NCBI GenBank assembly: GCA_013076295.1
Contig: RQOL01000532.1
Span: 4,588,001 to 4,652,000 of the forward strand
Direction: 5' to 3'
DNA from: Sanderia malayensis
Lineage: Eukaryota; Cnidaria; Scyphozoa; Semaeostomeae; Pelagiidae
Length of the DNA: 64,000 nt
Each line of letters opens with the position of its first letter. Position 1 is the stretch's first letter. A model generated the notes under the pieces. That model had not been told where the DNA came from. It saw only the letters and a list, made by a program, of their open reading frames with translations, and ran no database searches. Shown here one piece after another: positions 29,371 through 63,609 of this stretch. A program made the translations under genes and the position numbers.

Positions 29371-31357
29371 AATACTCTTGTTTACAGTTGGTAGCAAAGA
29401 TGTCTCCAAGACTTGGCACACATTTCCAGTGTTTTTCGGCATTGCAATGCTGCTGTTGAAAGTCTCCTTCAGGAGCAGACAATCTATCAAACTTCTGTGT
29501 CAGTAATGTGGCCGGTGACAGTACTATAGGCAAGTCTGGATCCGTGGAGATATCCACGAGAGGCCTCGAATTTATTATTTCATGGCTTCGCAAAGAACTG
29601 TGGTTAGAATCTCGTGCGTCAGTTCTTTTTCTTTTAACAGTATGGGGTGAAGGATTTTTTTGGTAACTCCAATCATTATCTCCCTGGTCCCACCCATGCG
29701 AGGAGCCTTTGAAGGGGCGGAAATCCAGTTACAATTTCTTTTCTGAGCTAGTTGTCTTACTTTGTTGTTCAGCAATAAGGTCAAGCTCATTGGCTGTTCC
29801 TACAAAGTTAGTGCTTTGATCGGATCTAAGGATTTTGCAGGACCTCTAAAGGGAAAAAATCTGCAAAGAGCATTAATAATGTAAGTTGTCCCAAATATTT
29901 CAATGTGAACAGCTCTTGAGAAAATGCAAGTAAACATGACCGCCCATCTTTTGCTGTTAGCAGACTCTAGTTCTTCTTGCCATGACTTCCCACGGACCGA
30001 AGACATCCAAGCCGACACTTGTGAATGCTGGGCATGGTGTCATACGGCCTGCTCGCAGATCCGCCATTTTCTGGGTGGTGATCGTGTATCTGAGTTTCTT
30101 GCAAGCAACACAGTTTCTAATAATAGAAGACATCAAGCCTTTGCTTTTTGTGATCTAGACACGGGAACTTCAGATGACACCTTATGTTATTTTGTGTCCT
30201 TGATGTTTTTTCTTCATTGTAACAACGGGGCATCAATTTTGCGAAGTGACGATTCTGTGGGAAAACAACTGGGTGTCGCTGATCTAATGGAATTTCCTGC
30301 TTCGTGTAACAGACCGTCTTAGGAACGGTGCGAGGCTTCTGATGGATTTCCCTTTTTTCATGTTCTTGTCGTTTTGCAGCAATTTTAGTTCTTGTCGGTA
30401 GCTCTCAGCTTTAACAACTTTGAAAATTACAGTTGAAGCTGAACTCCAGTTCTCGTCCTGAAAACCTCTAGAAACTTGGATCAACATGGCGAATTCCTTT
30501 GCAGCTCGAGAAACTCATACATCTGTGGCCGCCAAGGTTGAGTGACTGCAAAGCCGTTTTGAAAACAGTAGATTCTTGTCTCACTTCGGAATCAGAGTCT
30601 GGCTCGACAAGGTCAAACTCTCAAGCCTCTTTTTCGTTTTAGCACCCATGGCTTTGATTCAGGGATGTGGGACCTTCAAGCCAATTGCTTCTACTAAGAT
30701 CCGTAGCTGATGATGGCCTTGAAACAGTATCCTCAGGATTGTTGACTGTGCTTACATAATGCCATTGCTTGGGGTTGGTTGATTGTCGAATCCTGTTGAT
30801 TCTATTCGCTACGTAAGTATAAAAGCGAAATTATGTGTTATTCATGTAGCCAAATCTGGCTATCTTTGTAGAAAATCATTTGTTGAAGTGGAAAATCAAT
30901 CTCTTTGCCGATTGTTCCTAACATCTCTACAACTAGGATTGCAGCGAAAAGTTCCAGTCTAGGAATGGCCTGGGCTGCTTTGGGAGGGCCCCTTGACTTG
31001 GCAATAACAAAATCTATTTTCTAAATCTACTCTCGCTGTCATAGAAGACTCTTAAATAGATGACTGCACCAATGGGCGCTGTAGACGCATCAAAAAATAT
31101 AGGCAGTTCTACCTTTGCAACAGTCTTCAGTGATGAGTCCATGTAGCATCTTCGTGGTGATAAATTGTTGAGATCTTCAAGAGAGGATACCAATGCATTC
31201 CATTTTGCTTTCTTTTCTGGCTCGATTGGGTCGTCCCATGGTTCTGTTCCAGCTGACAGATCTCTGACAAGCAATCGTTCTTCTAGAGTGACTGGTGCTA
31301 CAAGACCCAATGGATCGTATACCCTGTTGACCATTGACAGTAAACCTTTTCGTGTAA
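29371..31357 (-). pseudogene. BEL/Pao copy 1: RT C-terminal part, RNase H region and integrase
   Basis: The minus strand reads in element order. The block GLLSMVN.VYDPLGL.APVTLEERLL (31340-31240) is the hallmark of Pao after the RT. WDDP and RRCY follow. The integrase then shows QKMADL, an FTCIFSRAVHIE-like stretch near 29950-29920, a GTNFVG-like patch in another frame, RMGGTREIMIG (about 29700), INSRPL (about 29570) and EYLS at the end. Frameshifts and stops are frequent. At its upstream edge the frame is cut by the 7,986-bp element; the 5' half of the RT resumes at 40316-41090. Confidence 0.88.
31350..31357. repeat. 8-bp target-site duplication, left copy (TCGTGTAA)
   Basis: TCGTGTAA directly precedes the left TIR of the composite element; the same octamer directly follows the right TIR at 39344-39351. 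In the Pao target it lies in the codons for the T-R of the conserved TRRGLLS-type motif. Confidence 0.9.
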
Positions 31358-31519
31358 GTAGGAGAGGGAGTGGGCGTCCTAGGACACGCATGCGCAGTAG
31401 AATTTTTTATTTATTTTAGTGTTAAGATCACGCATGCGCGAGAGTCTTCGAGAATTGAAAAGAGCATGAACAGTAAAAAATAATCGAAAACGATAACGGG
31501 AGGTTGTGGAAAGTTAGTT
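31358..31519. repeat. Left terminal inverted repeat of the composite element (162 bp)
   Basis: Matches the reverse complement of 39181-39343. It contains two CGCATGCGC motifs and an AT-rich middle. Confidence 0.92.
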
Positions 31520-32795
31520 ACGTAGTAAAGTAAGCCAAAGAATTACGCAGATTCTGACCGATGTTTCCAAAACTCTTAGAAACAAGAATTCTTCTCCATC
31601 CTTCTGCATCTAGGCCTGACGGACCACTAGAGCCTCTCGTCTGCATTGCTGCTTTCATAATTATGGAATCATCCAGGTTCTCGAAAAACACGGGGTCGAC
31701 AAAAGGTATTGGACCTTGTAGCAAAACACTTTCATCAATATCTGCTGCTTGGGGATGTTTTTTTTGCAATTCCAGGATGGTATCATTAGACAAAGGCAGA
31801 ACACCACCTCGTGTGGACTGATCAAGTAGGTTCAAAGCAGCTTTTACTTTGCCTTCAAGCATTAGTTTCGAGAAAGTCTTAGCGAGTTGTTCATCAGTCA
31901 ACTCCTTTCGAGAAGATTTCAAATGCTTCTGAATGGCCCTCACTTCTCTCAGAATAGCTTCAAAGTCACCAGAATGCCACAAGGCTAGGCGGCGAGAAAG
32001 ACACAATGTATGTTGCTTTGATGTAGACTTATAAGATGGCTTTTGTAGAAGGAGAGCGGGCATCACCATAACAACTTTCATGGCAATATCTTTGAAATTT
32101 ATTGCATCACTATTCCAGTGATCGAACCATTTTACCAACTCGTGGACAAACTTCTTGCCTTCCGAACCTGAGGGAAGTTTGAAAAGATTTCTCCTCCAAA
32201 ACACAATTTCATTATAGATTGAATCGAATTTAACAATAAGATCTTGAAAAGTATGATTTCCCCAAATTTGTAACTCTTGTAAAGCAGGAGGATCAGAATC
32301 CTGAGTTTGTTGATATTTTGGCATAACTGTTGATTGTTGTTGAGCTTTGAGTGTTGCATTGATGTTTTGTTTCTTTAAACATGTTCTCAAGTGAATTGAA
32401 CGCCCGTGTTCTGAAGAAAATGCACGAGGACATAGCGAGCATTGATACGATTTTGATTGCATAGGCGCAGAAGAATGTGGCGTCAAGTTCGAGTTCCATT
32501 GATGCGACGAGGTATCGTTCGAAAAAGTCGTTGGATTTGAAATAGAATTTGAACAAAGTTCAGTGCTAACTTCACTATCAATCCCAATATTATTACTTGA
32601 ATTTGAAATAGAACTGATAAAACTAGATATTTTACCACAAGATTGCAAGTGCTTGCTTAGACTACTGTTTGTTCGGAACAATCGGCTACATAAATTGCAA
32701 AGGAAATCTTCTTTCGGATTAACCAACACAGAATCAATGTGATAAATCAATTTTGTCAGATAATGAAGCACAAGGTTGTTTGCAATTATCAACAT
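31518..32795 (-). CDS. Truncated retroelement ORF: two CCHC-type zinc fingers and a GPSGLD motif
   Basis: An open frame of 425 codons. Two fingers of C-x2-C-x12-H-x3-C form are seen at residues 33-53 and 119-139. A helical region follows, then a KKHPQAA stretch, and then GSSGPSGLDAEGWRR at residues 389-402. This last motif is known to me from reverse-transcriptase-like proteins abundant in cnidarian and other invertebrate genomes, where the RT core follows; here the frame ends 23 residues later, before any RT core. Its stop codon falls on the inner edge of the left TIR (31518-31520), so the ORF was cut by a deletion or captured. A second ATG at 32853 opens an overlapping frame (MDFAAVQDLSV...) that would join this one after a single shift. 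Expression is unknown; it lacks the catalytic part. Confidence 0.6.
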   Translation of the reverse strand: MLIIANNLVLHYLTKLIYHIDSVLVNPKEDFLCNLCSRLFRTNSSLSKHLQSCGKISSFISSISNSSNNIGIDSEVSTELCSNSISNPTTFSNDTSSHQWNSNLTPHSSAPMQSKSYQCSLCPRAFSSEHGRSIHLRTCLKKQNINATLKAQQQSTVMPKYQQTQDSDPPALQELQIWGNHTFQDLIVKFDSIYNEIVFWRRNLFKLPSGSEGKKFVHELVKWFDHWNSDAINFKDIAMKVVMVMPALLLQKPSYKSTSKQHTLCLSRRLALWHSGDFEAILREVRAIQKHLKSSRKELTDEQLAKTFSKLMLEGKVKAALNLLDQSTRGGVLPLSNDTILELQKKHPQAADIDESVLLQGPIPFVDPVFFENLDDSIIMKAAMQTRGSSGPSGLDAEGWRRILVSKSFGNIGQNLRNSLAYFTT

Positions 32796-33055
32796 TTAGA
32801 TGACTTACTTCACCATCAGTAACTGATAAGTCTTGTACAGCAGCGAAATCCATTATGATAGCATACTGCACAATCTGCAGGCGTACTACTGCCAATACCA
32901 AAGCAGATCCAAAATACAAGTTGAAGAAAATACAACAAATAAACAAACCAGACGAAATCGCCAAATGAACAAAAATGATCCAGATAAGTCGTTTTGCAAC
33001 CAAAAACTATATTTAGGTGACTTCACCGAAGATATCGGCAGCCGGCAGCAAAATA
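32796..33055 (-). other. 5' region of the zinc-finger/RT-like ORF
   Basis: It contains the alternative ATG at 32851-32853 (minus) and a GAA-GTAAGT context at about 32810 that could be a splice donor. It ends at the left edge of the foldback element at 33056. Confidence 0.4.
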
Positions 33056-34666
33056 CGCTCTTTAACCGGAAATGAATTTTCATTGGCTAACGCGATTTTT
33101 CTTAGCGACGTGGTAGCAACGGGTCTGGCCATGGATCTTCACAGTGAAAAACCTATGGAGCTGCGCCCAACTCATGTTTTAAAAGTGGGTTTTATCGCGT
33201 TATTTTGGCAAAATATTGAAAAAATATGCTTTTCTTGCGGGTTCGTATATGATATTTCGAATTTGTCAAGTTTTTTTGTCTATTTTTGTTTCTCGGCTGT
33301 ATTTTGCGGTGTGTCAAAATGTGCCCTATATATACAAAATTTAGGCCCGTCCGCTAATCAATTGGTCAGTAACTCAATTTTTGGGGTTATGTTTCATTTC
33401 GATTCAGCAAATGATGAATTGCAGAAAACACTAATCATAAATAATAATCATTTTGAGGAAAATGGTGCGGGGTTGTGCTGTCTTGGTTAATTTTCAAACG
33501 CCCCTTGTGGAAGCTAATGTTTTACAGACAAGGTACATCAAATCAAATCAATATGCAGCTCTGAGTTGTTCTGTGTCCATATAACAAAAGGGCCCATTCA
33601 AGACTGACTGATAGCAGTGCAACTGGCATTAAAAACTAGCAATTTAATTCTCTATCCAAGTTTACATTTTTGCAAGTTAGAAACTATCCTCTTTAACTTA
33701 GACCTTCAGTTAAGCCTGAGCAATCTTCTCGAATGTGCTACTTCAATAGAGTCATTTGATCTCCAAGGTCCCTCTTACTTTTATTAGAGGGTGTTTCAGT
33801 GATACCATCCAGGGTGCACCTTATTAGTATACTTGGAAAAAGGTCCAAGCCAGTTGGTCGAATGTTATTTCCTGTGACTTTCATATATTACTCAAGCAAG
33901 TGTTTTATACATTTGAACCTTATATTATTCCATCTTTCATCCCCAATGGGATCAAGTACAAGCTGAACTGACATCAGCCCTTATTGAATGGACCCATTTT
34001 GTAATATGGACAGCAAAACAGCTCAAAACTATTGATGTAGCAAAAGAGAATTTACTTGGAAAAATGCCATCTATATATTTGCAAAATTTCTGAAATGGGT
34101 GAGATTATGCCATCCTACTATCAAAAAAGGTCAAAATCAATTAAAGAAAAATATAACATTTACGAATGCGCAATTCATCTGCACTCCTCATACAAGTGAA
34201 ACATAACATTTCATTTCGTACATTAGCTGCGTTTGAAAACTAACGGGTGTTTGAAAACTAACCGAGATAGCACGAACCCGCAATATTTATGATTAGTATT
34301 TTCTAGAATTCTGTATTTCCTCGATTGAAATGAAGTATATAACCCTAAGAGTTGAGTTTACTGACCAATTGACTGGCGGACGAGCCTAAATTTGGTATGT
34401 TTTGACAAGGCGCAAAATAAAACCCAGAAGTGAAAAATGTTTGAAAAAACTTGACAAATTTGAAATATCATATACGAACCCGCAAGAAAAACATATTTTC
34501 TTCAATATTTTACCAAAATAACGCGATAAAACCCACTTTTAAAACATGAGTTAGGCGCAGCTCCATAGGCTTTTCACTGTGAAGATGCATGGCCAGATCC
34601 GTTGCTACCACGTCGCTAAGAAAAATCGCATTAGCCAATGAAAATTCATTTCCGGTTAAAGAACGC
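33056..34666. mobile_element. Foldback element with about 310-bp inverted arms
   Basis: The left arm, starting CGCTCTTTAACCGGAAATGA (33056 to about 33375), is mirrored by the right arm (about 34365-34666, reverse complement GCGTTCTTTAACCGG...). Shared blocks include GCGACGTGGTAGCAACGG and AATGGTCAGTAA-like ends, with small differences throughout. The unpaired middle (about 33380-34360) shows no coding domain I recognise. No target duplication was identified. It is nested in the composite element. Confidence 0.85.
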
Positions 34667-35163
34667 ATAACAATTAATCAGATCTTTTCTTCACAGCTAG
34701 AAATACACGTCCGTCCGCCGTGAAATTCAATTCATTATTCACAATCCGAAGACTCGAAACCGAAATAAGTAATCCCCTCGGGGAAATCGCCCTGACGTCA
34801 TATTCAAAAGATTTTTCCAGAGGCAGAAAAATTCCTGCAATCTGATTGGCTAATGAAGATGACTCAGCAAAATTAGGAAATCACTGAGCCCCACATTCGA
34901 AAGATTTTTCCAGAAGCGGGGAAATCCCCTGACGTCACATTGAAAGATTTTTCTAGAAACAGAAAATCTCTGTAATCTGATTGGCTGATAGCCAAGATTT
35001 CGAGTCACTTTAAAACAAAACTTGAAATGGACATTATTCAAAACAAAATGTGCAAGCTGTTGAAGAAACTATTTTAACACGTTTCAAGAAGAAAGACGCC
35101 ATGAAAAAGAGACCATTTTCTTCATTAGCAAACAATAATATCTAAACCTTTTTATAAGCATTG

Positions 35164-35650
35164 TTATATCCTACTATATGGAAATGCTGGAGTACTATTA
35201 AATACAAGTTCATTCACAGCAGCATCCTCAGAATCACTAGCTTCCTCTTCTTCGTCATTCTTTGCTTGACGTATGATGAGATATTTTCTTTTCTCAACAG
35301 CATAATCTAAGGCCTCTTGCATATCCATATCATCTTCCCTCTGTGCTTTTTGCATCGTTGCTATAACTGCAGTTACAACAGCATCATTTTCAAAACTTCT
35401 ATTGTATAAAAATTTACGTTTGAAAACTTGCAATATGTTTTCATCTTCATGAACTTCCTTACGCATGGAAGGCCATACATTCCCTAAAGGAAGATCCTCC
35501 TTATTGTTGACAGTTTCATCATTACCATGATCACTTTCAACTTCTATCTCATCATCTGAGTCAGACTCTTCACTGCTTTCCCGTCGTGCATCTCTTCTTC
35601 ATGTCGTGTAACATTACTTTTATACTTGGAAGAAAATTCACATTGATCAA
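35164..35650 (-). pseudogene. Left-arm copy of the acidic zinc-finger gene, frameshifted
   Basis: It is nearly identical to the right-arm gene 37893-38393 in inverse orientation, including the C-terminal 100 codons (open from 35466). Near 35580-35590 a small indel breaks the frame. Upstream of the second Cys of the finger the sequence is different (the YKC part is lost and satellite-like sequence follows), and the promoter segment of the right arm is missing. It is therefore a broken duplicate. Confidence 0.85.
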
Positions 35651-35689
35651 CTTCATCTGCATTACTCTCTTCTTTCTGCATCATCAAAT

Positions 35690-36572
35690 TCATAGTCATT
35701 ACTGATCATCAGTTGATCTTTAGCTAATCCTTGATAATCCTAGCCAATCATACCTAATCATTAGCTGATCACGAGTTTATCCTTAACTGATCCTCAGTGA
35801 CCCTTATAGTCATTCATAGTCATTACTGATCATCAGTTGATCCTTAGCTGGTCCTAACTAATCCTTACCAATCATACTTAATCATTAGCAGATCATCAGT
35901 TGATCCTTAACTGATCCTTACGAATCCTTACTAATCATTCTTAATCATTATCTGATCATCAGTAGATCTTTTACTGATCCTTGATAATCCTAGCCAATCA
36001 TACCTAATCATTAGCTGATCACGAGTTCATCCTTAACTGATCCTCAGTGATCCTTATGGTCATTCATAGTCATTACTGACCATCAGTTGATCCTTAGCTG
36101 ATCCTCACCAATCCTTACCAATCATACATAATCATTACCTGATCATCAGTTGATCCTTAGCTGATCCTCACTAATCCTTACCAATCATACTTAATCATTA
36201 GCAGATCATCAGTTGATCCTTAACTGATCCTTGCTAGTTCTTATCAATCTTTCCTAATCATCATCTGATCATCAGCTGATCCTTACTAGTCCTTACCAAT
36301 CATTCCTAATCAATACCTGATCCTTAGTTGTTCCTTAACTAATCCTTACGAATCCTTACTAATCATTCTTAATCATTACCTCATCATAAGTTGATCCTTA
36401 ACAGATCCTTCTAATCCTAATTATTCATTACTAATCATAGCTAGTCATTACATAATCATTAGTTGATCTTTAACCGATCCTGGCTTTATCCATTCAACAT
36501 TTATCCTTACTAATAATTTCTTATCATAACCCAATCCTTGTTAATCCTTGCCCAGATTTTATTAATCTTCAG
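35690..36572. repeat. TGATCA-rich satellite, left arm
   Basis: Short degenerate units of the form (T)GATCCTTAGCTGATCCT, AATCCTTACCAATCAT and ATCATCAGTTGATCC, reading in the opposite sense to the right-arm array. The high content of GATC/TGATCA makes it locally self-complementary too. Confidence 0.9.
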
Positions 36573-36611
36573 TTGATCCCGGTTCTGTACTGAACACCCT
36601 CCACAGTACTG

Positions 36612-37730
36612 CTGAAGATTAATAAAATCTAGGCAAGGATTAATAAGGATTGGGTTATGATAAGAAATTATTAGTCAGGATTAGTAAGGATAAATGTTGA
36701 ATGGATAAAGCCAGGATCAGTTAAAGATCAACTAATGATTATGTAATGACTAGCTATGATTAGTAATGAATAGTTAGGATTAGAAGGATCTGTTAAGGAT
36801 CAACTAATGATGAGGTAATGATTAAGAATGATTAGTAAGGATTCGTAAGGATTAGTTAAGGAACAACTAAGGATCAGGTAGTAATTAGGAATGATTGGTA
36901 AGGACTAGTAAGGATCAACTGATGATCAGATGATGATTAAGTATGATTGGTAAGGATTAGTGAGGATCAGCTAAGGATCAACTGATGAACAGGTAATGAT
37001 TATGAATGACTATAAGGATCACTGAGGATCAGTTAAGGATAAACTCGTGATCAGCTAATGATTAGGTATGATAGGCTAGGATTATCAAGGATTAGCTAAA
37101 GATCAACTGATGATCAGTAATGACTATGAATGATTGTATGGATTATCAAGGATCAGCTAAGGATCAACTGATGATCAGTAATGACTATGAATGACTATAA
37201 GGATCACTGAGGATCAGTTAAGGATAAACTCGTGATCAGCTAATGATTAGGTATGATTGGCTAGGATTATCAAGGATTAGCTAAAGATCAACTGATGATC
37301 AGTAATGACTATGAATGACTGTAAGGATTATCAAGGATCAGCTAAGGATCAACTGATGATCAGTAATGACTATGAATGACTATAAGGATCACTGAGGATC
37401 AGTTAAGGATAAACTCGTGATCAGCTAATGTTTAGGTATGATTGGCTAGGATTATCAAGGATTAGCTAAAGATCAACTGATGATCAGTAATGACTATGAA
37501 TGACTGTAAGGATTATCAAGGATCAGTTAAGGATCTTCTGATGATCAGGTAATGAATAGGTATGATTGGTAAGGATTAGTAAGGATCAGTGAAGGATCAA
37601 CTAATGATCAGGTAATGATTAGGAATGATAATCAAGAATGTATTGAGGATCAAGTATTGAGAAGGTAATGACTAGGAATGATTAGCTAGAATGGAGTAGT
37701 CATTAATCAGGATTAGTTAGCATTTTCCAA
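36612..37730. repeat. TGATCA-rich satellite, right arm, with a 185-bp higher-order unit
   Basis: Units such as GGATCAGCTAAGGATCAACT and GATGATCAGTAATGACTATG recur. In 37010-37530 they form a higher-order repeat of about 185 bp: TATAAGGATCACTGAGGATC appears at 37011, 37196 and 37381. The rest is more degenerate. Confidence 0.9.
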
Positions 37731-37815
37731 GGATTAAGTTTTGTTTATTCGGAAATATCGTTCAGTGCGAGGGCAGAATCCCTCTCCCGTATCATATTGA
37801 ATGGAGGAACTTATC

Positions 37816-37822
37816 TATAAAA
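37816..37822 (+). promoter_or_regulatory. TATA box candidate of the right-arm zinc-finger gene
   Basis: TATAAAA, 71 nt before the ATG at 37893, lies in the only unique segment (37741-37865) between satellite and ORF. It is absent from the left arm. Confidence 0.4.
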
Positions 37823-37892
37823 TCAAGCGAGTTGAGACTCTAGAATTCAGGGATTTAAGAGTTAGTTGGTAATTATAAGTAAACAGCTAGCC

Positions 37893-38393
37893 ATGAGTCA
37901 GTATAAATGTGATCAATGTGAATTTTCTTCCACGTATAAAAGTAATGTTACACGACATGAGGAAGAGATGCACGAGGAGAGCAGTGAAGAGTCTGGCTCA
38001 GATGATGAGATAGAAGTTGAAAGTGATCATGATAATGATGAAACTGTCAACACTGATGAGGATCTTCCCTTAGGGAATGTATGGCCTTCTATGCGTAAGG
38101 AAGTGGATGAAGATGAAAACATATTGCAAGTTTTCAAACGTAAATTTTTATATAATAGAAGTTTTGAAAATGATGCTGTTGTAACTGCAGTTATAGCAAC
38201 GATGCAAAAAGCACAGAGGGAAGATGATATGGATATGCAAGAGGCCTTAGATTATGCTATTGAGAAAAGAAAATATCTCATCATACGTCAAGCAAAGAAT
38301 GATGAAGAAGAGGAAGCTAGTGATTCTGAGGATGCTGCTGTGAATGAACTTGTATTTAATAGTACTCCAGCATTTCCATATAGTAGGATATAA
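37893..38393 (+). CDS. Small acidic C2H2 zinc-finger protein carried by the giant palindrome
   Basis: 166 codons from ATG 37893 (context CTAGCCATGA). One N-terminal C2H2 finger lies at residues 6-27 (C6, C9, H22, H27). A long Glu/Asp/Ser run follows (residues about 28-58). Next comes a mixed-charge helical domain (EDENILQVFKRKFLYNRSFE..., about 70-135), a second acidic run (EEEEASDSED) and the tail NSTPAFPYSRI. I do not recognise the family. One C2H2 finger plus acidic stretches suggests a nucleic-acid or chromatin contact, but this is inference. The frame is intact although the left-arm twin is broken, which hints at selection or recent origin. An in-frame TTG extension to 37866 exists but the ATG is preferred. 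Confidence 0.6.
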   Translation: MSQYKCDQCEFSSTYKSNVTRHEEEMHEESSEESGSDDEIEVESDHDNDETVNTDEDLPLGNVWPSMRKEVDEDENILQVFKRKFLYNRSFENDAVVTAVIATMQKAQREDDMDMQEALDYAIEKRKYLIIRQAKNDEEEEASDSEDAAVNELVFNSTPAFPYSRI

Positions 38394-38815
38394 CAATGCT
38401 TATAAAAAGGTTTAGATATTATTGTTTGCTAATGAAGAAAATGGTCTCTTTTTCATGGCGTCTTTCTTCTTGAAACGTGTTAAAATAGTTTCTTCAACAG
38501 CCTGCACATTTTGTTTTGAATAATGTCCATTTCAAGTTTTGTTTTAAAGTGACTCGAAATCTTGGCTATCAGCCAATCAGATTACAGAGATTTTCTGTTT
38601 CTAGAAAAATCTTTCAATGTGACGTCAGGGGATTTCCCCGCTTCTGGAAAAATCTTTCGAATGTGGGGCTCAGTGATTTCCTAATTTTGCTGAGTCATCT
38701 TCATTAGCCAATCAGATTGCAGGAATTTTTCTGCCTCTGGAAAAATCTTTTGAATATGACGTCAGGGGGATTTCCCCGAGGGGATTACTTATTTCGGTTT
38801 CGAGTCTTCGGATTG

Positions 38816-39180
38816 AATGACAAAACAGAACTTACTTTGAACTTGAAAGAGCAGCAACTCACCTTGGATTTCAGAAGACAGAGATTTGACGCGTACATTC
38901 GAACGTCGCATTCGAAAGTTTCTGATTGGTTCTTTGAATTCAATCTCGAGCCGAGAACGTGAATTTTTCAGTTCCTCGATATTTTTGTGTTTTCTTGCGA
39001 TTTATTTAACAAATCCTTATCATCTTATAAGTGCATGAAGAATATGAAATAATTCATTCAATATAATCAAGAGATTTTCTTTTTATTGGTGTAAAAATCT
39101 TTTTCGTAAACAAATCCGTTTTTTAGTTACTAAGCTTTTTATGGGTTTTTTATCAGCTTTGGCGATGTTTTGCAACTTCA
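38816..39180. other. Unique segment between palindrome and right TIR
   Basis: About 365 bp with no recognised coding. If the nested inserts are removed it would be the 5' region of the minus-strand zinc-finger/RT-like ORF. Confidence 0.4.
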
Positions 39181-39343
39181 AACTAACTTTCCACAACCTT
39201 CCCGTTATCGTTTTCGATTATTTTTTACTGTTCATGCTCTTTTCAATTCTCGAAGACTCTCGCGCATGCGTGATCTTAACACTAAAATAAATAAAAAATT
39301 CTACTGCGCATGCGTGTCCTAGGACGCCCACTCCCTCTCCTGC
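39181..39343. repeat. Right terminal inverted repeat of the composite element (163 bp)
   Basis: Mirror of 31358-31519 with one added base and about one substitution. Confidence 0.92.
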
Positions 39344-39351
39344 TCGTGTAA
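39344..39351. repeat. 8-bp target-site duplication, right copy (TCGTGTAA)
   Basis: Identical to 31350-31357. A short piece of Pao coding continues to 39371 before the next insert. Confidence 0.9.
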
Positions 39352-43360: not shown

Positions 43361-44734
43361 ATAACCTCGATTTGGATGTTTTTGTTGATACCAGCGCTAA
43401 GCATTCCTTGATTCTCAGTATGGGGTGTGAAAACAGGTTTCCTTGGGGCAGGAGATGGTCAGTTCTGCAGCATGTTTGATAGGTGTTGGAGGAGAAAGAC
43501 TGCCTGTTGTTGCTGAAGGAAGAATATGTTTGCAAATTACGGGGTTGCAGTTTGATTTGCCGGTAATTATTGTTGATGAGTTTAAATTTGATTTGCTTTA
43601 GGGAGACGAATTTTTGCGGAGTAAAGGTGTAATCATAGATTATGGTGTAAAGAAATTAAAGTTGTGTGGCCTTGATGTTTCGTTTAAAAGTCTGCCTTCT
43701 GACTGTGTACTTGTTTTGAAATCTGTTGTGACATTACCAGCGGGGAAGCCTGTGCGGAGTTTGGAATCATTGTTGTTTGGATTTGTTCGGAGAAAGGCAA
43801 TTGGTGACGACTGATGAGAGGGTCTTGGTAGCACCTGTTGTAACCAAAGCTGATTCCGACAAGTTTGTTTTGGTCGAGGTGGCAAACACTACTTGCAGCA
43901 AACTTCCCTTGCAGCCTGGCATCAAACTGATGCATCTGCAGCCATTTCTGTCTGACGTCAATACTGTCCGTGCCGAACAGACTGCTAAAGATGTTACAGA
44001 ATTACCCATAGAAGAAATGAAGATCAGCCACTTGTCAGAAAAACAGAAGTCAAGTTTGCTTTTTGTTTTCAAGAAACACGACGTTTGGCCGAAGTCTGGA
44101 CGATTGGCGACCACGCCTCTGGTAGAACATGCTGTCGACGTGCAAGGAGGAGAACCTGCCAGACAACGACCCTGCCGTGTGCCTGAAACGAAAAGAAACG
44201 TAATAGCAAACGAAGTGCAGAGGATGCTGTTGTCAGACGTTATTCGACCATCAGCCAGCCCTTGGAGTAGTCCAGTGATACTATTGGAAAAGCCTAATGG
44301 TGAATACCAACTCTGTTTCGACTACCGGTGACTGAACGAAGTGACGAAGAAAGACGCATATCCTCTGCCTCGAATAGACAAAACGTTAGATGCGGTTGGC
44401 AATACAACCTGGTTCAGCACTTTGGATCTCCAATCAAGGTATTGGCAAATACCTATGAGGGAAAGCGACACCAAGAAAACAGCGTTCATGACTCACCATG
44501 GCACTGGGAATTTCGTGTGATGCCTTTTAATATGGCCAACGCCCCAGCTACGTTTCAGAGATTGGTGGATCTAGTGCTATCAGACCTGCATTGGACACAT
44601 TGCTTGGTATACCTTGACGATATCGTTGTATTTGCTGCTACAGAAGAAGAACACATGCGAAGACGTGACTTGGTTCTGGAAAAAATTGCGGTTGGACTGT
44701 GAAGCCATCGAAATGTCAGTGACTGCAACGACAA
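43361..44734 (+). pseudogene. gypsy-1 protease and reverse transcriptase
   Basis: The protease active-site stretch reads FVDTSAKHSLI near 43380 (D-T-S where D-T/S-G is usual). RT blocks follow: SPWSSPVILLEKP (about 44265), LCFDYR (44325), DAYPLPRID, STLDLQS, MPFNMANAPATFQ, and the catalytic YLDDIV near 44610. There is a stop directly after FDYR and several shifts. Confidence 0.88.
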
Positions 44735-45240
44735 GTGAAGTCTCTCGGCCACATTGTATCCAGTGAAGGCGTAGCAGTAGACCCAGCAAAAGTAAAAGCA
44801 GTGAAGTCTTTTCCAGCACCGAAAAATCAGACAGATGTGAGAAGTTTCGTTGGCCTGACGTCCTACTACCGAAGATTTATTCCGGAGTATGCAAGTCGTA
44901 CTAAAGCCCTTACGGAGTTGACAAAGGAGAAATGCGAATTTAACTGGAGTGAAGAAGCTGACAAGTTTTTTGAAGATCTGAAAAACTGCCTGTCTACAGC
45001 ACCCGTACTACGATGTCCTGATTTCAATCTGCAATTCAAGCTGTACACTGACACATGTGGTTACGGGATTGGCGCTGTTTTAGCTCAAGAAAATGCCGAT
45101 GGAGAAGTCGTCATCGCATACGCTAGCCGTGTGTTGAAGTCATCAGAGAAGAAACACGCAGTGCTGCAGAAAGAAGCCCTAGGTATTGTGGGGTCATTGA
45201 AACATTTCTATACATACATGTATGGCTGACGATTCACTGT
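44735..45240 (+). pseudogene. gypsy-1 RT connection and RNase H
   Basis: LGHIVSSEGVAVDP, SFVGLTSYYRRFIP, then the RNase H block with LYTDTCGYGIGAVLAQ, YASRVL and KEALGIV. The frame is open to 45229 and then stops. Confidence 0.88.
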
Positions 45241-53302: not shown

Positions 53303-54791
53303 GGCATAGTCTATTAATCGGACCTTGAGACTATGGACCCCGGACCCCGGACCATACCATGTGACCGGACCGTAGGACCGGACCATAGGACCAGACCATA
53401 AGACCAGACCATAGTTTCGGACCAGAGGGAATCCCCACATTTATGAAGTATAATTTAAATTAATTGTTACGGCTTCGGTGATGTCTTCGGTGATATTTCC
53501 GGGCATCACGATATTTACATTCGTGACTTCTTGATAAATTGTCAACTTGGTTCCTGTCTACTAAGGGTCTACTCTTTCTCTGTTCACCAATATATCTCTC
53601 ATGAGATTCGAACAAGCAAATAGTACGCACACATACAATACACAAAATGACACAATCATATTTATTCCTTCATTTCTGTCACGAAACCAAGAGCTTCTTT
53701 AAAGCATACAATAACGACTGTCGACAAACGACAAACAACGACAAACAACGACAAAAGTATCTCCAACACTGCACAAACGGCGGCCCAACAACAATAAATC
53801 CAAAAGACTACGTCAAGGCAACAAGATCTTTCTCAAGCATCCTCATCCCCAACGTTAGGTTTCTTCCCCTCGATCACAACGAGTTACTTGTAGAAATATA
53901 TTTTTGAAACTCGATTTTGCTACCAGAGGTTTCTTGAGTCTTTATGAAATTTTTGTATACGGAAACGTGCTAGATTTTAAGTAGTTTTTGTAATGTAACG
54001 TGTATCAGCAGGACACATATCCAGAGATATACTTATTTATTATTTATTTCAACAACAATAAACATAATAATAAACATAATAATAATAAACATAATAATTT
54101 CAACAACAATAAACGTTTCGTGTGGCAGAATCAAATTTAACAAAACTTTCAGCATTTAACAAATTTAACACTCAAGAAACCTTTGGCAGCAAAATCGAGT
54201 TTCAAAAATATATTTCTACAAGTAACTCGTTGTGATCGAGGGGAAGAAACCTAATGTTGGGGATGAGGATGCTTGAGAAAGATCTTGTTGCCTTGACGCA
54301 GTCTTTTGGATTTATTGTTGTTGGGCCGCCGTTTGTGCAGTGTTGGAGATACTGTTGTCGTTGTTTGTCGTTGTTTGTCGTTTGTCGACAGTCGTTATTG
54401 TATGCTTTAAAGAAGCTCTTGGTTTCGTGACAGAAATGAAGGAATAAATATGATTGTGTCATTTTGTGTATTGTATGTGTGCGTACTATTTGCTTGTTCG
54501 AATCTCATGAGAGAAATATTGGTGAACAGAGAAAGAGTAGAGCCTTAGTAGACAGGAACCAAGTTGACAATTTATCAAGAAGTCACGAGTGTAAATATCG
54601 TGATGCCGGGAAATATCACCGAAGACATCACCGAAGCCGTAACAATTAATTTAAATTACTTCATAAATGTGGGGATTCCCTCTGGTCCGAAACTATGGTC
54701 TGGTCTTATGGTCTGGTCCTATGGTCCGGTCACATGGTTTGGTCCGGGGTCCGGGGTCCATAGTCTCAAGGTCCGGTTAATAGACTATGCC
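53303..54791. mobile_element. Foldback Mutator-like element (MULE-type), 1,489 bp
   Basis: The ends GGCATAGTCTATTAA are perfect inverted repeats. A 9-bp duplication CAACCTCGC flanks the element (53294-53302, 54792-54800), the size used by Mutator-like elements. The arms are about 630 bp each (53303 to about 53941; about 54169 to 54791) and nearly identical, so the same open frame appears once on each strand (53647-53907 plus, 54202-54462 minus). That frame has no recognised domain. The arms start with a degenerate GGACCATA minisatellite. The spacer of about 225 bp is AATAATAAAC-rich. It is non-autonomous. Confidence 0.92.
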
Positions 54792-55323: not shown

Positions 55324-56213
55324 ATGACAACCGAGCCAAGTTCTCCAAATTTTATACCTACGCCCTCGCACGAACTGCAAGATGTGTCTACGACAGCACC
55401 AATGGCTGCTTACAACTTAAAGCTGCCTCCATTTTGGCCTCACGATCCTACGATCTGGTTCGCCCAAGTTGAGGCACAGTTTCGTACAAAAAACATTACG
55501 ACCCAACGCCAACGTTTTGCTCATGTCGTCTCAGTGCTTCAACCAGAAATCGCTGAGGAAGTTAGAGAAATGTTGCTGAACCCATCAATTCTCAACCCAT
55601 ACGATACTTTGAGGAACGAACTAATTAAACATACCTTACTTTCCGAACAAAAACGATTGCACCAGCTCTGCTCTTGAATGCCGAAGAGTTGGGCGATCGC
55701 AAACCATCTCAACTTCTTCGTAAGATGCAACAGTTGCTTGGTGAACAAAGGCTCGACCAAAAAATATTTCGTCAACTATTTTTACAACGATTACCAATAA
55801 ATGTTCAACTCATTTTGGCTTCCACAACTGATGAAATGGCGTTAGATCAACTGGCTTCATTGGCTGACAAAATACTCGAAGTCAATCCAGCAATTTCTAC
55901 CATTTCGACAATCTCTCCCAAACCATCTCCTACAGCCTCCGTTGATTCTCCATCCCTTCTCCAATTGCAAATCAATCAATTAACCAAACAGGTAGAAGCT
56001 CTCACTACTCAAATCAATTCCGAATCCAATTTTCGAAGACCAAATTATTCTCAACGCTCACGATCGCCATTTCGAAACAACTTCAGCAGACAGCGTTTCC
56101 GTTCTCCCAGTCGTCCGGACTTCATGCCACAGCCAATATGCTGGTATCATAAGAGGTTCGGTCCACACAGGCCCATCGTTGCATCCCACCTTGCTCATAC
56201 GTTGCTGACGTAA
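55324..56213 (+). pseudogene. gypsy-2 gag, one frameshift
   Basis: ATG 55324 opens a capsid-type gag: PPFWPHDPTIWFAQVEAQF and FAHVVSVLQPEIAEEV are typical of this gypsy lineage. The frame stops at 55677; the natural continuation (EELGDRKPSQLLRKMQQLLG) is one frame over, running to 56213, where a further shift occurs near the CWYHKRFG zinc-knuckle start. So gag carries one or two frame breaks. A Ser/Arg-rich segment lies before the knuckle. Confidence 0.9.
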
Positions 56214-56249
56214 CCCCTACTGCTCCTCCACAGCCAGCTCACAGTGCAC

Positions 56250-56664
56250 AACAACAGGGAAACGGCCAAGCCAGAGTTTAGCGGCGACAAGACCCTCTGG
56301 CACATTACACAATAGTCGTCTCTACTACGTCACCGACCGTTATTCGGGAATTAGATTTTTAGTCGATACCGGCGCATCCGTTAGTGTTATTCCATGTCGT
56401 CTTTCGGACAAGCGTAACCAGGTCACTAACCTCCAACTTCAAGCCGTTAATAACTCGTCCATTGCAACGTATGGTGAACGATCGTTAACCTTGAACCTTG
56501 GTTTGCGTCGACTCTTTCGTTGGATTTTTATTATTGCGGATATTCCCACACCTATTATTGGAGCCGATTTCCTTTCATATTTTTCGTTAAATGTTAACGT
56601 TCGTCATCGTCTATTATTCGATACAACAACTAATTTAAAAATTCAGATAAATATGATATGGTGA
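56250..56664 (+). pseudogene. gypsy-2 protease
   Basis: The pepsin-like site reads FLVDTGASVSVIP (Asp near 56364), followed by IIGADFL (about 56560), the usual second landmark. The frame ends at a stop near 56663 and differs from the pol frame that begins at 56698. Confidence 0.85.
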
Positions 56665-56697
56665 AGTCTCTGATGAAGGAATGCCTTCATCAGAGGA

Positions 56698-59469
56698 ATG
56701 ACTTCACCTCAGCTAATGTTTGCGATTCCCGACGTTAACCAAAAATACAAGGAACTTCTTACTAAATTTAATTCAATAACAAGACCAAACTATGACGAAT
56801 CAGCAGTTAAACATAATGTTACACACCACATTGAAACAAAAGGTCCTCCTGTCTTCAGCCGTCCACGCCGTCTTGCACCTGATCGATTGGCAATAGCCAA
56901 ACGTGAATTCGATCACATGCTGCAACTTGGTATCATTCGGCCCTCAAATAGCAGTTGGTCCTATCCACTTCACATGGTCCCTAAGCCAACCCCAGGAGAT
57001 TGGAGACCATGTGGTGATTACCGCGCACTTAACAATGTCACAATTCTGGACCGTTACCCCATTCCACATATTCAAGATTTTACAACAATGCTACATGGAA
57101 AAACAATATTTTCAAAAATTGATCTCGTCCGCGCCTATCATCAAATCCCCGTAGAACCTGCTGATATTCCCAAAACTGCTATTACTACCCCTTTCGGATT
57201 ATTTGAGTTTGTCCGCATGCCATTTGGTCTACGTAATGCTGCACAAACATTTCAACGCTTTATTAATCAAGTTTTACATGGTCTTGACTTTGTTTACGCT
57301 TATATTGATGACTTACTAATTGCCAGCGCTTCAGAAGCAGAACACCTTCAACATATAGATCTGCTCTTCACTCGTTTATCCGAATTTGGCGTCGTAATCA
57401 ACCCAGCAAAATGTGTCTTTGGTTCATCTTCACTCGAATTTCTCGGTCATCACATCTCCGTAGAAGGAATTTCTCCGCTGCAAACCAAAGTTTCTGCAAT
57501 ACGCGATTTTCCGGCACCAACATCACTACGTCAACCGCGCGAATTCCTAGGTTTAATCAACTTTTATCGTCGTTTTATTCCAAACTGTGCAACCATCGTT
57601 CAACCACTCACAGATCTTCTGGGCGGTAAACACACCAGAAACGCCCTTCATCTCGACGACGCTGCACTTGCTGCATTTACAGCCATTAAATCAGCACTTT
57701 CCGATGCTACGTTACTGGTACATCCATCACCCGATGCTCCCTATTGCCTCATGGTTGATGCATCTAATGTTGCCATAGGATCTGTTTTACAACAACGCAT
57801 TAGCGGTTCTTGGCAGCCGATTTCATTCTTTTCAAAACGATTACAGCCCGCCGAAATCAAATATAGTACATTTGGTCGTGAACTACTCGCCGTTTATCTT
57901 TCACTTCGTCACTTCCGACATTGTTTGGAAGGTCGCAAATTTTACGTTCTCACCGACCATAAGCCATTAACGTACGCATTAGCCTCGTCTGCCGATCGTC
58001 ATTCTCCTCGCGAAATCCGCCATCTTGACTTCATATCGCAATTCACCACCGACATCCGCCGCATTACTGGCAAAGAAAATGTCGTTGCTGACGCTTTGTC
58101 AAGAACTGACGTTAATTCCTTACACCTGGCATCCCCGATCGATTTCACACTGCTCTCCAAGGCACAACAAGAAGACACAGATCTACATCAATTGAACGAC
58201 ACATCTTCACTTCAATTAAAGGAATTTCCCATTCCTAACGCCCCTGGCACCATACTCTGTGATACAACGACTAGTACTCCGCGTCCATACGTTCCAGTCC
58301 CTTTTCGTCGTTCCATCTTCGATCACTTGCATTCTCTATCTCATCCGGGTATTCGCGCCACACAGAATCTGATCACCGCACGCTACGTTTGGCCTAACAT
58401 CAACACTGACCTTCGACGTTGGACTCGTTCCTTCATTCCGTGCCAACGATCCAAAATTCAACGTCACACTGTCGCACCTATTGGCACATTTGCAACGCCA
58501 GATGCTCGATTTGATCATGTACATATCGATCTCGTAGGTCCACTTCCACCTTCGAACGGGTTTTGATATCTCCTGACTTGTATCGATCGATTTACACGAT
58601 GGCCAGTAGCAATTCCAATTGCAGATATCACAGCTAAAAATGTCGCACGTCACTTCCTTCACCATTGGATTTCTCATTTCGGTATCCCTTCCACCATTAC
58701 GACCGATCGCGGCGCACAATTTGAATCTTCGCTCTTCAAAACACTCACAACACTCCTTGGCATTAAACGTATACGCACTACCTCATACCACCCATGTGCA
58801 AACGGTATGGTAGAACGATTTCACCGCCAACTCAAGTCCTCCTTGAAAGCACACCCAGATGCAAGCAAATGGTCTGAAGCATTGCCCCTCGTCCTCCTTT
58901 CAATTCATAATACAATTAAAACCGACCTCGATTGCACACCTTCTCAGCTCGTCTTTGGAACAACTTTACGTTTACCTGGCGAATTCTTTACTCCGTCTCG
59001 CAACCAATCAGACCTCGATCCAGCCAACTACGCTCATCGTCTTCAGCTAGTCATGCAAAAATTATCTGCAATTCCACTTCGCCAACAATCACCCTCTTCG
59101 CACATACCAGCTGACCTTGCCTCCTGCACACACGTCTTTGTCCGACACAATGCTGTCCGAAAGCCTTTGCAAGCACCTTACGATGGCCCTTACAAAGTTC
59201 TTCATCGCACCGACAAGCATTTTCTACTCGCCATCAAAGGCAAACCTAATGCAGTCAGCATTGACCGCCTCAAAGTCGCACACCTCGACACGGCCTATCT
59301 ACCTCTTACATCGCCACCACCTCTGCTTTCCGACAACGCCCCACTTACTCCCGCATCTACCGAACAACAACCACCTCCACAACACCTGCCCGCCCAGCCC
59401 TCTCTTCAGCGCACTACTCGCTCTGGAAGACACGTCCATTTTCCCGTTCGCTACGGATTTGACTCTTAA
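56698..59469 (+). pseudogene. gypsy-2 pol: RT, RNase H, integrase; one in-frame stop
   Basis: 924 codons in a single frame, broken only by TGA at 58564-58566. [47 protein letters not shown] and the catalytic YIDDLL at 57301. RNase [35 protein letters not shown]. Integrase: HSLSHPGIR, zinc ligands with FIPCQ (the first Cys of C-x2-C is Phe), HIDLVGPLP (Asp), TTDRGAQFES (Asp), NGMVERFHRQLK (Glu), so the D-D-E triad is present. The C-terminus is Pro-rich and basic, ending RSGRHVHFPVRYGFDS. Only the stop and the Cys-to-Phe change look damaging. Confidence 0.93.
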
Positions 59470-61825: not shown

Positions 61826-63390
61826 CTAAAATGAAAGTCCAAGTCCATATAGTTCCGGTATCTTCCTTGCTCGTTCCGATCTTCTGACATAAATCTGATT
61901 TCGTTGCGGTTCTGCTTCAACAATTGGTTCATCATCATCACTGCTGTCTACACTCTGAACTTGTTTCGGAATCTTCTTGAAATGAGAAATGTTACGTGTG
62001 ATTCTATGTTTATCTCCATTTTCTGCGATTATTGTCACACCTTTCCGCTCTATAACAACATAGGGCTTCTCATTAAACTTAGGCATCAATTTACGCTTTT
62101 TCTCTTGACGAACTAATACAGTATCACCTTCTTTGATGTGACTTTCCTTTGCATGTCTCTGTGTATCAGCGTACTGCTTATTATAATCTTTACGAATGAG
62201 TTCATTACTTTCAGCTTCCTTGTGACGATTAATGATCTTGCGTGGTTGTAATTCTGGTAACGATCCACGTACTGAACGATTGAATAATAATTCCGCTGGT
62301 GGTACACGAGTAGTACTATGTGGAGTCGTCCTGTACTGAAGAAGAAATCTAGTTAAAACTTGTTGCCATTTCTTTCCTTCAGTTGTAGCAGTTGTTAAAG
62401 CTTTGTTCAAGGGTTGCATAAATCTTTCGACTTCTGCGTTCCCTTGAGGCCACTTTGGAGTAGAAGGATCATATTTTACTCCAAGTAATTTTAGATACCG
62501 ACGAAGCTCGTCACCGTTAAACGGTGGACCATTGTCCGATGTCAACTCATACGGAATACCACCGAAAACATCTTGTCCAATTTTGGAATTACCACTGAAG
62601 CTTTCGTAGATTTAATAATTTCCACTTCTGGATAGCGCGAATACCGATCAACCACAACCAAAAGTAACTCTCCAGAAGGAAGAGGTCCGAAGAAATCAAT
62701 GTTTAGTCTATACCACGGTTTTCTTTTCCAACAGCTTGACAAGGTAAGCATTTATCGATGCTTTGCTTGATGAGTTGATCCATGTTTGGAAACCATAATT
62801 TTTCTCTGCTGAGTGCTTTGGTCTTTGAAAGACCTTGATGAGTTATGTGAGCGATATCTATAGCGCGTTGTCTGAGCGAATCTGGAAGCACGATTCTCGA
62901 ACCTCGTAGAATGATATTAGAAGGTCCGATTGACAATTCATCCTTGACATGAACGAATTGTTTGACAGTATCTGTGTTCCAAGAGCTTAATTGTATAGCA
63001 GCCCGAAGCGCTTTCATGGTTTTATCTGAGTTTGTTGCTTCTTTGATTTCAGAAGAGGTCATGGTTTTTGGCACGGAGTGTTCAACTATAAAGTTGATGT
63101 ACTCTTCGGGAATGTGTCCTTGATCACCATTCGAATGGACCGAAGGATGACGCGAAAGAAAAACAGCATGATTGCTAGGGCCTGGCCTGTATTGTACTTT
63201 AAAGTCATACGGCTGAAGGCGCAAGACCCATCTTTCTATTCTAGCCGACGGCTTAAAACGAACATTCCCGTATATCACTTCAAGAGGCTTATGATCTGTG
63301 ATTAATGTGAATGTTGACCCGTAAAGGTACAGATGGAAGTGTTCGATAGCCCATACTATTCCAAGAGCTTCTTTTTCGGTTTGCGAATAA
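61826..63390 (-). pseudogene. Ty3/gypsy element 3: RNase H and integrase, 5' truncated
   Basis: Minus strand: SQTEKEALGIVWAIEHFHLY and LITDHKPL (RNase H, 63390-63270); the integrase zinc domain H-x3-H (HITHQG) and CLPCQ (about 62735); WYRLNIDFFGPLP (Asp); after one shift SDNGPPF (Asp, 62535) and GNAEVERFMQ (Glu, about 62420). The C-terminus is basic and ends with RRSERARKIP...LSF, stop at 61826. This fits the K02A2.6/Mdg-like invertebrate gypsy lineage. Frame breaks lie near 62540-62700. Upstream RT and gag are missing; it is joined to Pao sequence at about 63391. Confidence 0.88.
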
Positions 63391-63609
63391 CTGTGGAGAA
63401 CGGAACGAAGACAAACACATCGGATAAATATATACAAAACTGATATATCGAATACTAATGAAACGTGAATACAAAAGCGTAATGTTAGGAAGAACGTAAT
63501 AATAAAAAGTGAGCGACATATGATCAGAACGATAAAATATAATTGGGCTTTGGTAACTAATGTCAATCATATGAATTACTGTCAATCATGTGTGTTCTAC
63601 TTGACATAC
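63391..63609 (-). mobile_element. Possible LTR piece of BEL/Pao copy 3
   Basis: On the minus strand, after the purine/G-C tract GGCCGGGCCCCAG, TGTCAAGTAGAACACACATG could start an LTR. It is cut at about 63391 where gypsy-3 RNase H begins. Confidence 0.4.

What the first reader, a model, noticed from the sequence alone, without database searches (positions are those of the whole stretch)
34742..38815. 4-kb giant palindrome with satellite arms and a zinc-finger gene present as one intact and one broken inverted copy
Arms of about 2 kb mirror each other, with only 39 nt between them. The right arm has an intact 166-codon acidic C2H2 gene with a TATA box; the left-arm twin is frameshifted and lacks the promoter. 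Transcription through the centre would give a very long hairpin RNA. I know of no described element with this layout.
Basis: partly seen in the sequence, partly recalled or inferred. Interest (0 to 1): 0.75.

Follow-up and report, generated by a model that had tools for sequence, protein, structure and literature searches.

The report
Palindromic hitchhiker of a virus-like transposon
The giant mirror-image sequence is one copy of a family of mobile elements that share the ends of a large virus-like transposon (Polinton/Maverick), are built almost entirely as a palindrome, and carry the same small zinc-finger gene in both halves.

Summary
The palindrome is real, but it is the inner part of a larger element, window 31357-39344, flanked by a 6-bp target duplication (CGTGTA); its left arm was later broken by two unrelated repeats. 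It belongs to a family: 117 gene copies in the 184-Mb genome, 80 of them in 40 divergent (palindromic) pairs. Of 24 elements with both ends read, 19 have exact 6-bp duplications; shuffled mean 0.08. At least eight pairs are intact in both arms, so the window's broken left gene is local decay. The terminal ~470 nt match full-size Polinton/Maverick elements in the same genome (94.8% to one): 13 of 56 such ends have a Polinton integrase piece within 30 kb inward, 1 of 56 outward. In seven elements the two arms differ by 0-0.66%; between elements the minimum is 1.57%, so arms are equalised near insertion time. Best reading: a non-autonomous Polinton derivative with snapback-genome architecture, mobilised in trans by Polinton integrase and protein-primed polymerase (the trans action is inferred). 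The literature searches run listed no such element. A long hairpin RNA is not supported: both genes point outward from the centre.

The parts
31351..31356 (.). left target-site duplication CGTGTA
   Evidence: direct; exact match to 39345-39350
31357..31519 (+). left outer end of the element, 5'-AGTAGGAGAGGG..., surviving 163 nt of the left terminal inverted repeat
   Evidence: 98.8% to 39181-39344 inverted
31524..33042 (.). later insertion 1: unrelated repeat unit, overlapped by a 425-codon open frame (31518-32795, minus) with C2H2 fingers
   Evidence: five other full copies at 99%, homology limits at 31524 and 33042; Pfam zf-C2H2
33053..34669 (.). later insertion 2: unrelated 1.62-kb element with its own ~390-nt terminal inverted repeats
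   Evidence: 33053-33443 vs 34284-34668 at 85%; 33 other near-full copies at 93-98% among 40 candidates scored
34742..35649 (-). left arm: inner end segment and broken copy of the 166-codon gene
   Evidence: 97.9% to 37910-38815 inverted; stops and frame change
35688..36571 (-). left satellite arm (~63-bp units, 250-bp higher order) and inner arm
36572..36610 (.). 39-nt unpaired centre; similar loop in other copies
36611..37740 (+). inner arm and right satellite arm (185-bp higher order), to about 37740
37816..37821 (+). TATAAA box 77 nt upstream of the ATG
   Evidence: sequence match only
37893..38393 (+). intact 166-codon gene: one C2H2 finger, acidic stretch, conserved block (residues 71-137)
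38394..38815 (+). right inner end segment with degenerate ~37-nt repeats
38868..39344 (-). right Polinton-type terminal segment, 94.8% over 477 nt to the C404 Polinton; the inverted-repeat end reads 5'-AGCAGGAGAGGG
39345..39350 (.). right target-site duplication CGTGTA

Best explanation
It is a non-autonomous derivative of a Polinton/Maverick. It has the Polinton's terminal ends but no polymerase, integrase, ATPase or protease gene that I found. It consists of two inverted copies of one arm (terminal segment, 166-codon gene, satellite) around a ~30-40-nt loop. A resident Polinton supplies the integrase (giving the 6-bp target duplication) and the protein-primed polymerase. During replication the two arms are copied from one another (displaced strand folding back, or end panhandle), so a newly inserted element has nearly identical arms, which then decay separately. 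The palindrome arose once, by a snapback-type inverted duplication of half of a single-gene ancestor, and was then amplified as a palindrome. Shown: ends, TSDs, shared ends with integrase-bearing elements, near-equal arms, similar centre, a single-gene relative. Inferred: the trans-acting enzymes, the fold-back copying, the single origin and the birth by snapback. The 166-aa protein most likely binds element or helper DNA through its zinc finger; that is a guess.
For: 6-bp TSD exact in 19 of 24 elements with both ends read (23 family members plus the C404 Polinton), 5 of 6 bases in 2 more; shuffled mean 0.08, maximum 2 in 2000. Terminal 477 nt 94.8% identical to C404:5428-31888, a 26.5-kb element with rve plus chromodomain integrase, Pox_A32-type ATPase, a weak adenovirus-type protease hit and a 747-aa frame whose listed relatives include proteins with PF03175 and PF02945, e.g. 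P0010 with both at 56% identity. With all 141 integrase matches, 13 of 56 distinct ends have one within 30 kb inward and 1 of 56 outward; six lie on the same strand at 5.2-7.2 kb. Arms within 7 elements: 0-9 differences over 1.08-1.37 kb (0-0.25% in six, 0.66% with 15 gaps in one); 98 between-element comparisons: minimum 1.57%, median 2.6%. Similar centre in nine copies, one of them partial; 98.5-99% palindrome over 3.2 kb in four of six examined. Single-gene form with the same ends and TSD GAGGTC. Vertebrate Mavericks: 6-bp TSD, TIR 46-1447 nt, (AGT)2 or (AG)3 end motifs (PMC8097293, passages).
Against: No activity was seen; extrachromosomal forms, RNA and helper dependence were not testable. 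The C404 Polinton itself shows no 6-bp TSD: outside its ends the flanks are inverted repeats for 253 nt, and it is damaged, with frames that look copia-type by eye lying inside it. The TSD of another full-size Polinton was not read. Three of the 24 rows fail the TSD test: C404 and two C559 copies (which share their flanks, so are probably one event). Five of the 13 inward integrase pieces are on the opposite strand, and distances go up to 24.9 kb. Equal arms could also come from gene conversion.
Confidence: 0.8

Rival explanations
1. A classical foldback cut-and-paste transposon (Mutator- or P-type) with satellite arms, unrelated to Polintons.
For: Anatomy: long inverted arms with internal tandem repeats and a short loop, as in Tetris and Galileo (PMC4079207, PMC3573991, passages).
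Against: TSD is 6 bp, not 8-10 (Tetris) or 7 (Galileo). The ends are those of integrase-bearing Polintons.
Confidence: 0.06
2. The arms stay equal because of ongoing gene conversion within each chromosomal palindrome, not because of the replication mode.
For: Arms of large palindromes can convert each other (recalled); arms within an element are 0-0.66% apart in seven elements.
Against: The window's own arms differ by 16 of 866 with 2 gaps and have shifted satellites; in C817 the inner satellites are out of register while the outer arms are 94-100% per 100 columns. Conversion that kept all copies equal should not allow this. Only eight elements were compared.
Confidence: 0.2
3. Assembly mirror artefact.
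For: Palindromes are prone to mis-assembly; the C432 array looks suspicious; no reads were available.
Against: 40 divergent pairs against 3 convergent and 8 same-strand neighbours, distinct flanks with exact TSDs at 19 elements, arms with private differences.
Confidence: 0.02
4. The palindrome forms anew at many loci from single-arm elements instead of having one origin.
For: A single-gene form exists.
Against: The loop sequence is similar in nine copies.
Confidence: 0.05

Closest known systems
Polinton/Maverick self-synthesizing transposons
   Same: Terminal inverted repeat several hundred nt starting 5'-AGTAGG in most copies read, 6-bp TSD, ends shared with integrase-bearing elements in the same genome
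   Different: Complete copies of 4.57 kb (C817) and 5.0 kb (C303), others longer; no Polinton core gene found in the window element; almost wholly palindromic; satellite arms; a gene with no match in the C404 Polinton
Foldback transposons (Tetris, Galileo, Drosophila FB)
   Same: Giant inverted arms made partly of tandem repeats, rearranged copies
   Different: 6-bp TSD, Polinton ends, a conserved protein gene in both arms
Snapback / defective-interfering virus genomes (AAV snapback genomes, PMC8235507, passages; adenovirus symmetric recombinants, recalled)
   Same: Half genome duplicated as an inverted repeat, keeps the helper's end, depends on helper enzymes (here inferred)
   Different: Integrated, inherited and amplified to tens of loci; encodes its own gene; satellite in the middle

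Membership tests
Polinton/Maverick | 6-bp target-site duplication | tested here: met
   19 of 24 exact; feature in PMC8097293
Polinton/Maverick | terminal inverted repeats of tens to >1000 nt with AGT- or AG-type end motif | tested here: met
   AGTAGG-type ends in the copies read (AGCAGG at the window's right end); shared terminal segment ~470-530 nt. The second triplet is AGG, not AGT or AG-AG as in vertebrates
Polinton/Maverick | encodes protein-primed PolB, RVE integrase, ATPase, protease | tested here: not met
   Frames of 60 aa or more from ATG in the window's palindrome: the 166-aa gene, a 100-aa remnant of its twin, and a 68-aa frame at 38756-38962. The single-gene form shows no other frame of 110 aa or more. 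Hence a derivative, not a Polinton proper
Polinton/Maverick (as non-autonomous derivative) | ends shared with a gene-bearing relative in the same genome | tested here: met
Polinton/Maverick (as non-autonomous derivative) | mobilised by the relative's enzymes | not testable with these tools
   needs experiment
Foldback of Mutator or P type | 8-10-bp or 7-bp TSD | tested here: not met
   6 bp
Foldback (as anatomy) | inverted arms making up nearly the whole element with internal tandem repeats | tested here: met
Snapback defective genome | inverted duplication of one half with one helper end at both termini | tested here: met
   arms equal incl. ends
Snapback defective genome | replicates as a folded molecule with helper polymerase and interferes with it | not testable with these tools
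   no replication data

The most novel reading that the evidence does not exclude
A germline-inherited, palindromic satellite of a Polinton: a snapback (defective-interfering-like) genome that became a transposon family, kept a helper's ends, acquired its own zinc-finger gene in two copies, and uses that protein to favour its own replication or integration over the helper's.
Probability: 0.3. Interest if true: 0.82.

Novelty: new variant of a known kind. Interest (0 to 1): 0.62.

Why it matters
Polintons are thought to replicate by protein-primed synthesis and are linked to DNA viruses, but how they copy and move in animals is little observed (recalled). A family of near-perfect palindromes with Polinton ends and recent, near-equal arms is a natural record of how those ends are copied, and makes the fold-back step testable. 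It would also show that foldback anatomy can arise from Polintons, not only from cut-and-paste transposons, and that Polintons have inherited parasites with a gene of their own.

Tried and rejected
Structure prediction of the 166-aa protein: mean pLDDT 47.7, so no fold search was run. Solved structures: one weak zinc-finger hit, E 0.053. Viral contigs: 13 pattern matches, no relative by tblastn. NCBIfam: nothing near a cut-off. Homologous proteins: only 4, at 98, 88, 86 and 75%, from contigs of at most 2.1 kb and unnamed origin.

Selection on the gene: evidence is mixed. Pooled pN/pS 0.44 in 30 copies chosen by protein score, so biased. One arm from each of 27 elements: 54 nonsynonymous, 22 synonymous changes, not different from neutral (p 0.22); 67 changes private to one element look neutral (ratio about 0.96); the 9 shared ones look constrained (about 0.26, p 0.045). 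Window against C170 and C45: 0.67 and 0.61; C170 against C45: 3.6 on one synonymous change. Codon-model log-likelihood -1351.1 free versus -1354.2 with omega 1 and kappa both fixed. Protein-level heterogeneity in 5 sequences (57 of 67 residues invariant in block 71-137, 49 of 99 elsewhere, p 2.8e-6) argues for a constrained domain; the block was chosen after seeing the alignment.

The 18-kb copy at C859:6.11 Mb was considered as an autonomous form: its extra DNA shows repeated transposon-like frames and none that I recognised as Polinton; these frames were judged by eye, not scanned. Literature, listings only: Polinton with palindrome (20 of 44 papers listed), Maverick/foldback/non-autonomous (20 of 29), non-autonomous Polinton names (3 of 3), Polinton/foldback/tandem repeats/sponge (15 of 16), Polinton TSD (15 of 37), adintovirus/satellite/palindromic (12 of 314): no title or abstract start described such an element. 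Searches for adenovirus palindromic defective genomes listed none usable, so that parallel is recalled. The founding Polinton paper is not held.
Full report
WHAT IS THERE. The mirror at 34742-38815 is real, with a 39-nt unpaired centre, satellite arms and an intact 166-codon acidic C2H2 gene at 37893-38393. The left twin is broken and lacks the TATA-bearing stretch. The window lies at G000:C479:4588001-4652000 in a 184-Mb, 918-contig genome of an unnamed organism.

THE TRUE ENDS. Outward from 38815 the sequence keeps matching other copies of the family, after a ~60-nt stretch that most of them lack, as far as 39344, where the matches stop. The same terminal 163 nt recur inverted at 31357-31519 (98.8%). 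Just outside both ends stands CGTGTA, a 6-bp target duplication. Between 31520 and 34741 the left arm has been replaced by two unrelated repeats: 31524-33042, with five other full copies at 99%, and 33053-34669, a 1.62-kb element with its own inverted ends and 33 other near-full copies at 93-98% among 40 candidates scored. The left arm has no counterpart of 38816-39180 (365 nt).

A FAMILY. A genome search with the protein gave 144 matches, which merge to 117 gene copies. Of neighbouring copies within 18 kb, 40 pairs are divergent (minus then plus), 3 convergent and 8 on the same strand; 80 copies are in divergent pairs and 37 are unpaired. Some unpaired ones lie at contig ends; C571:314005-317626 is a single-gene form, whose own gene has a stop and a frame change. 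Eight pairs were read intact in both arms (C613, C817, C605, C432, C569, C913, C559, C622), and the table shows more. In 28 loci chosen by their ends and not by the gene, 27 gene copies were found, 13 of them full length without stop or indel. The centre is shared: the window's copy and eight others have similar loops, one of them (C817) only in part; of the six examined for symmetry, four are 98.5-99% palindromic over 3.2 kb, one is 95%, one is rearranged. I infer that the palindrome arose once and was amplified as such.

TARGET DUPLICATIONS. For 26 entries I looked for both ends. Two had only one end recognised by the pattern (C807, C571); C571 was then read by eye: GAGGTC on both sides. Of the 24 with both ends (23 family members and the C404 Polinton), 19 match 6 of 6, two match 5 of 6, and three fail: C404 and two C559 copies that share the same flanks. 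Shuffling the right flanks gave a mean of 0.08 and a maximum of 2 in 2000 trials. The C432 entry pairs the first left end and the last right end of an array.

THE HELPER. The terminal segment is shared with larger elements. C404:5428-31888 has both ends (94.8% and 94.5% over 477 nt) and between them an RVE integrase with chromodomain (E 1.1e-10 and 2.6e-7), a Pox_A32-like ATPase (6e-7), a 747-aa frame with an endonuclease VII domain, and a weak adenovirus-protease hit (0.0038, under the cut-off). Pfam did not see a polymerase domain in the 747-aa frame, but among its 120 relatives listed are proteins with DNA_pol_B_2 and Endonuclease_7 domains, e.g. P0010 with both. This fits the Polinton gene set listed in PMC4028283 (passages) and PMC6431247 (passages). 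The copy is damaged: frames that look copia-type by eye lie inside it. Genome-wide, PF03175 gives 7 matches and the integrase 141. each scored 40 candidates and together give 56 distinct ends. Of these, 13 (12 elements, since both C404 ends count) have an integrase piece within 30 kb inward and 1 of 56 outward, at 28.6 kb (all 141 matches; with 65 of them gave 13 and 0). Eight of the 13 are on the same strand as the end, six of these at 5.2-7.2 kb. At least 27 of the 56 ends have a 166-aa gene piece within 6.5 kb inward (26 gene places typed in, so a lower bound); none of these has an integrase. The gene had no DNA match in the C404 element.

HOW IT WORKS. Shown: the ends and TSDs are Polinton-like, and integrases sit inside such ends. 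Inferred: Polinton integrase and polymerase act on the palindrome in trans. Arms of one element are nearly equal: 1/1237, 3/1217, 2/1082, 3/1256, 0/1258, 0/1366 and 9/1373 differences in seven elements (the last, C559, also with 15 gaps), against 1.57-3.6% in 98 between-element comparisons. So the arms are equalised close to the time of insertion, while the window's own, older arms differ by 16/866 with 2 gaps. In a protein-primed, strand-displacement scheme the displaced strand of such an element can fold on itself and the arms are templated by one another; that step is inference from adenovirus-like replication (recalled). The single-gene form is end-satellite-gene-inverted satellite-end, with inverted ends of about 1 kb that include satellite. 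Doubling its satellite-gene-end half around the satellite, by snapback of a broken strand, would give the palindrome; the ~400 nt between gene and terminal segment in the palindrome are not in that form. AAV snapback genomes are a documented parallel of form (PMC8235507, passages).

THE PROTEIN. It has one C2H2 finger (PF13909, 26.6 bits, just under its cut-off of 27), an acidic stretch, and a conserved block at residues 71-137. Four relatives were found. Evidence for selection in this genome is weak (details under Tried and rejected): changes private to single insertions look neutral, as expected after insertion, the few older shared ones look constrained. Function is a guess: DNA binding at satellite or ends.

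THE HAIRPIN RNA IDEA. Both genes read outward and the TATA box lies between satellite and gene, so ordinary transcripts would not cross the centre. It was not tested by RNA.

COMPARISON. Foldback transposons share the anatomy but have 8-10-bp (Tetris) or 7-bp (Galileo) duplications (passages). Vertebrate Mavericks share the 6-bp TSD, a similar end motif and TIR sizes of 46-1447 nt (PMC8097293, passages); 6-bp TSDs are also stated as typical of the RVE integrase in Polinton-like viruses (PMC12220804, passages). The element fails the Polinton definition by gene content and is filed as a non-autonomous, palindromic derivative: a new variant of a known kind. The searches named in Tried and rejected listed no such element in the held open-access library; repeat databases and closed journals were not searchable.

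Noticed in passing
L070/L072/L099/L100 (G000:C404 around 5175-5427 and 31889-32141): Outside its ends the C404 Polinton is flanked by the same 253 nt in inverted orientation (1 mismatch) with no target duplication at that border; insertion into an inverted repeat, recombination and mis-assembly cannot be told apart.
   Followed up: partly
G000:C432:107697-127932: Four left ends and left gene copies at a regular ~4.88-kb spacing with a single right end found: a tandem array of the palindromic element or an assembly problem.
   Followed up: no
window 33053-34669: A separate 1.62-kb element with ~390-nt inverted ends; 33 other near-full copies at 93-98%; a 157-codon frame in it (33017-33490) has no Pfam match.
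   Followed up: partly
window 31524-33042: A 1.52-kb repeat unit with a 425-codon frame bearing C2H2 fingers, five other full copies at 99%; may be part of a retroelement (guess by eye).
   Followed up: partly
window 43732-45229, 55629-59469, 61826-63566: Frames that read like LTR retroelement polyproteins (by eye); the window is rich in mobile elements.
   Followed up: no
window 53303-53942 and 54167-54791: A further inverted repeat, 96% over 640 nt with 224 nt between the arms.
   Followed up: no
G000:C859:6110674-6128115 (L073, L074): A palindrome copy with a 6-bp TSD (GGTGTA) with other transposon-like frames inside, repeated twice in tandem, one resembling Tc1/mariner by eye.
   Followed up: partly
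window 38816-38876 and L011 (G000:C859:5778659): A ~60-nt stretch in the window's right arm is absent from most copies; its first 43 nt recur at the same place in the C859:5.78 Mb copy, so a subfamily may exist.
   Followed up: no
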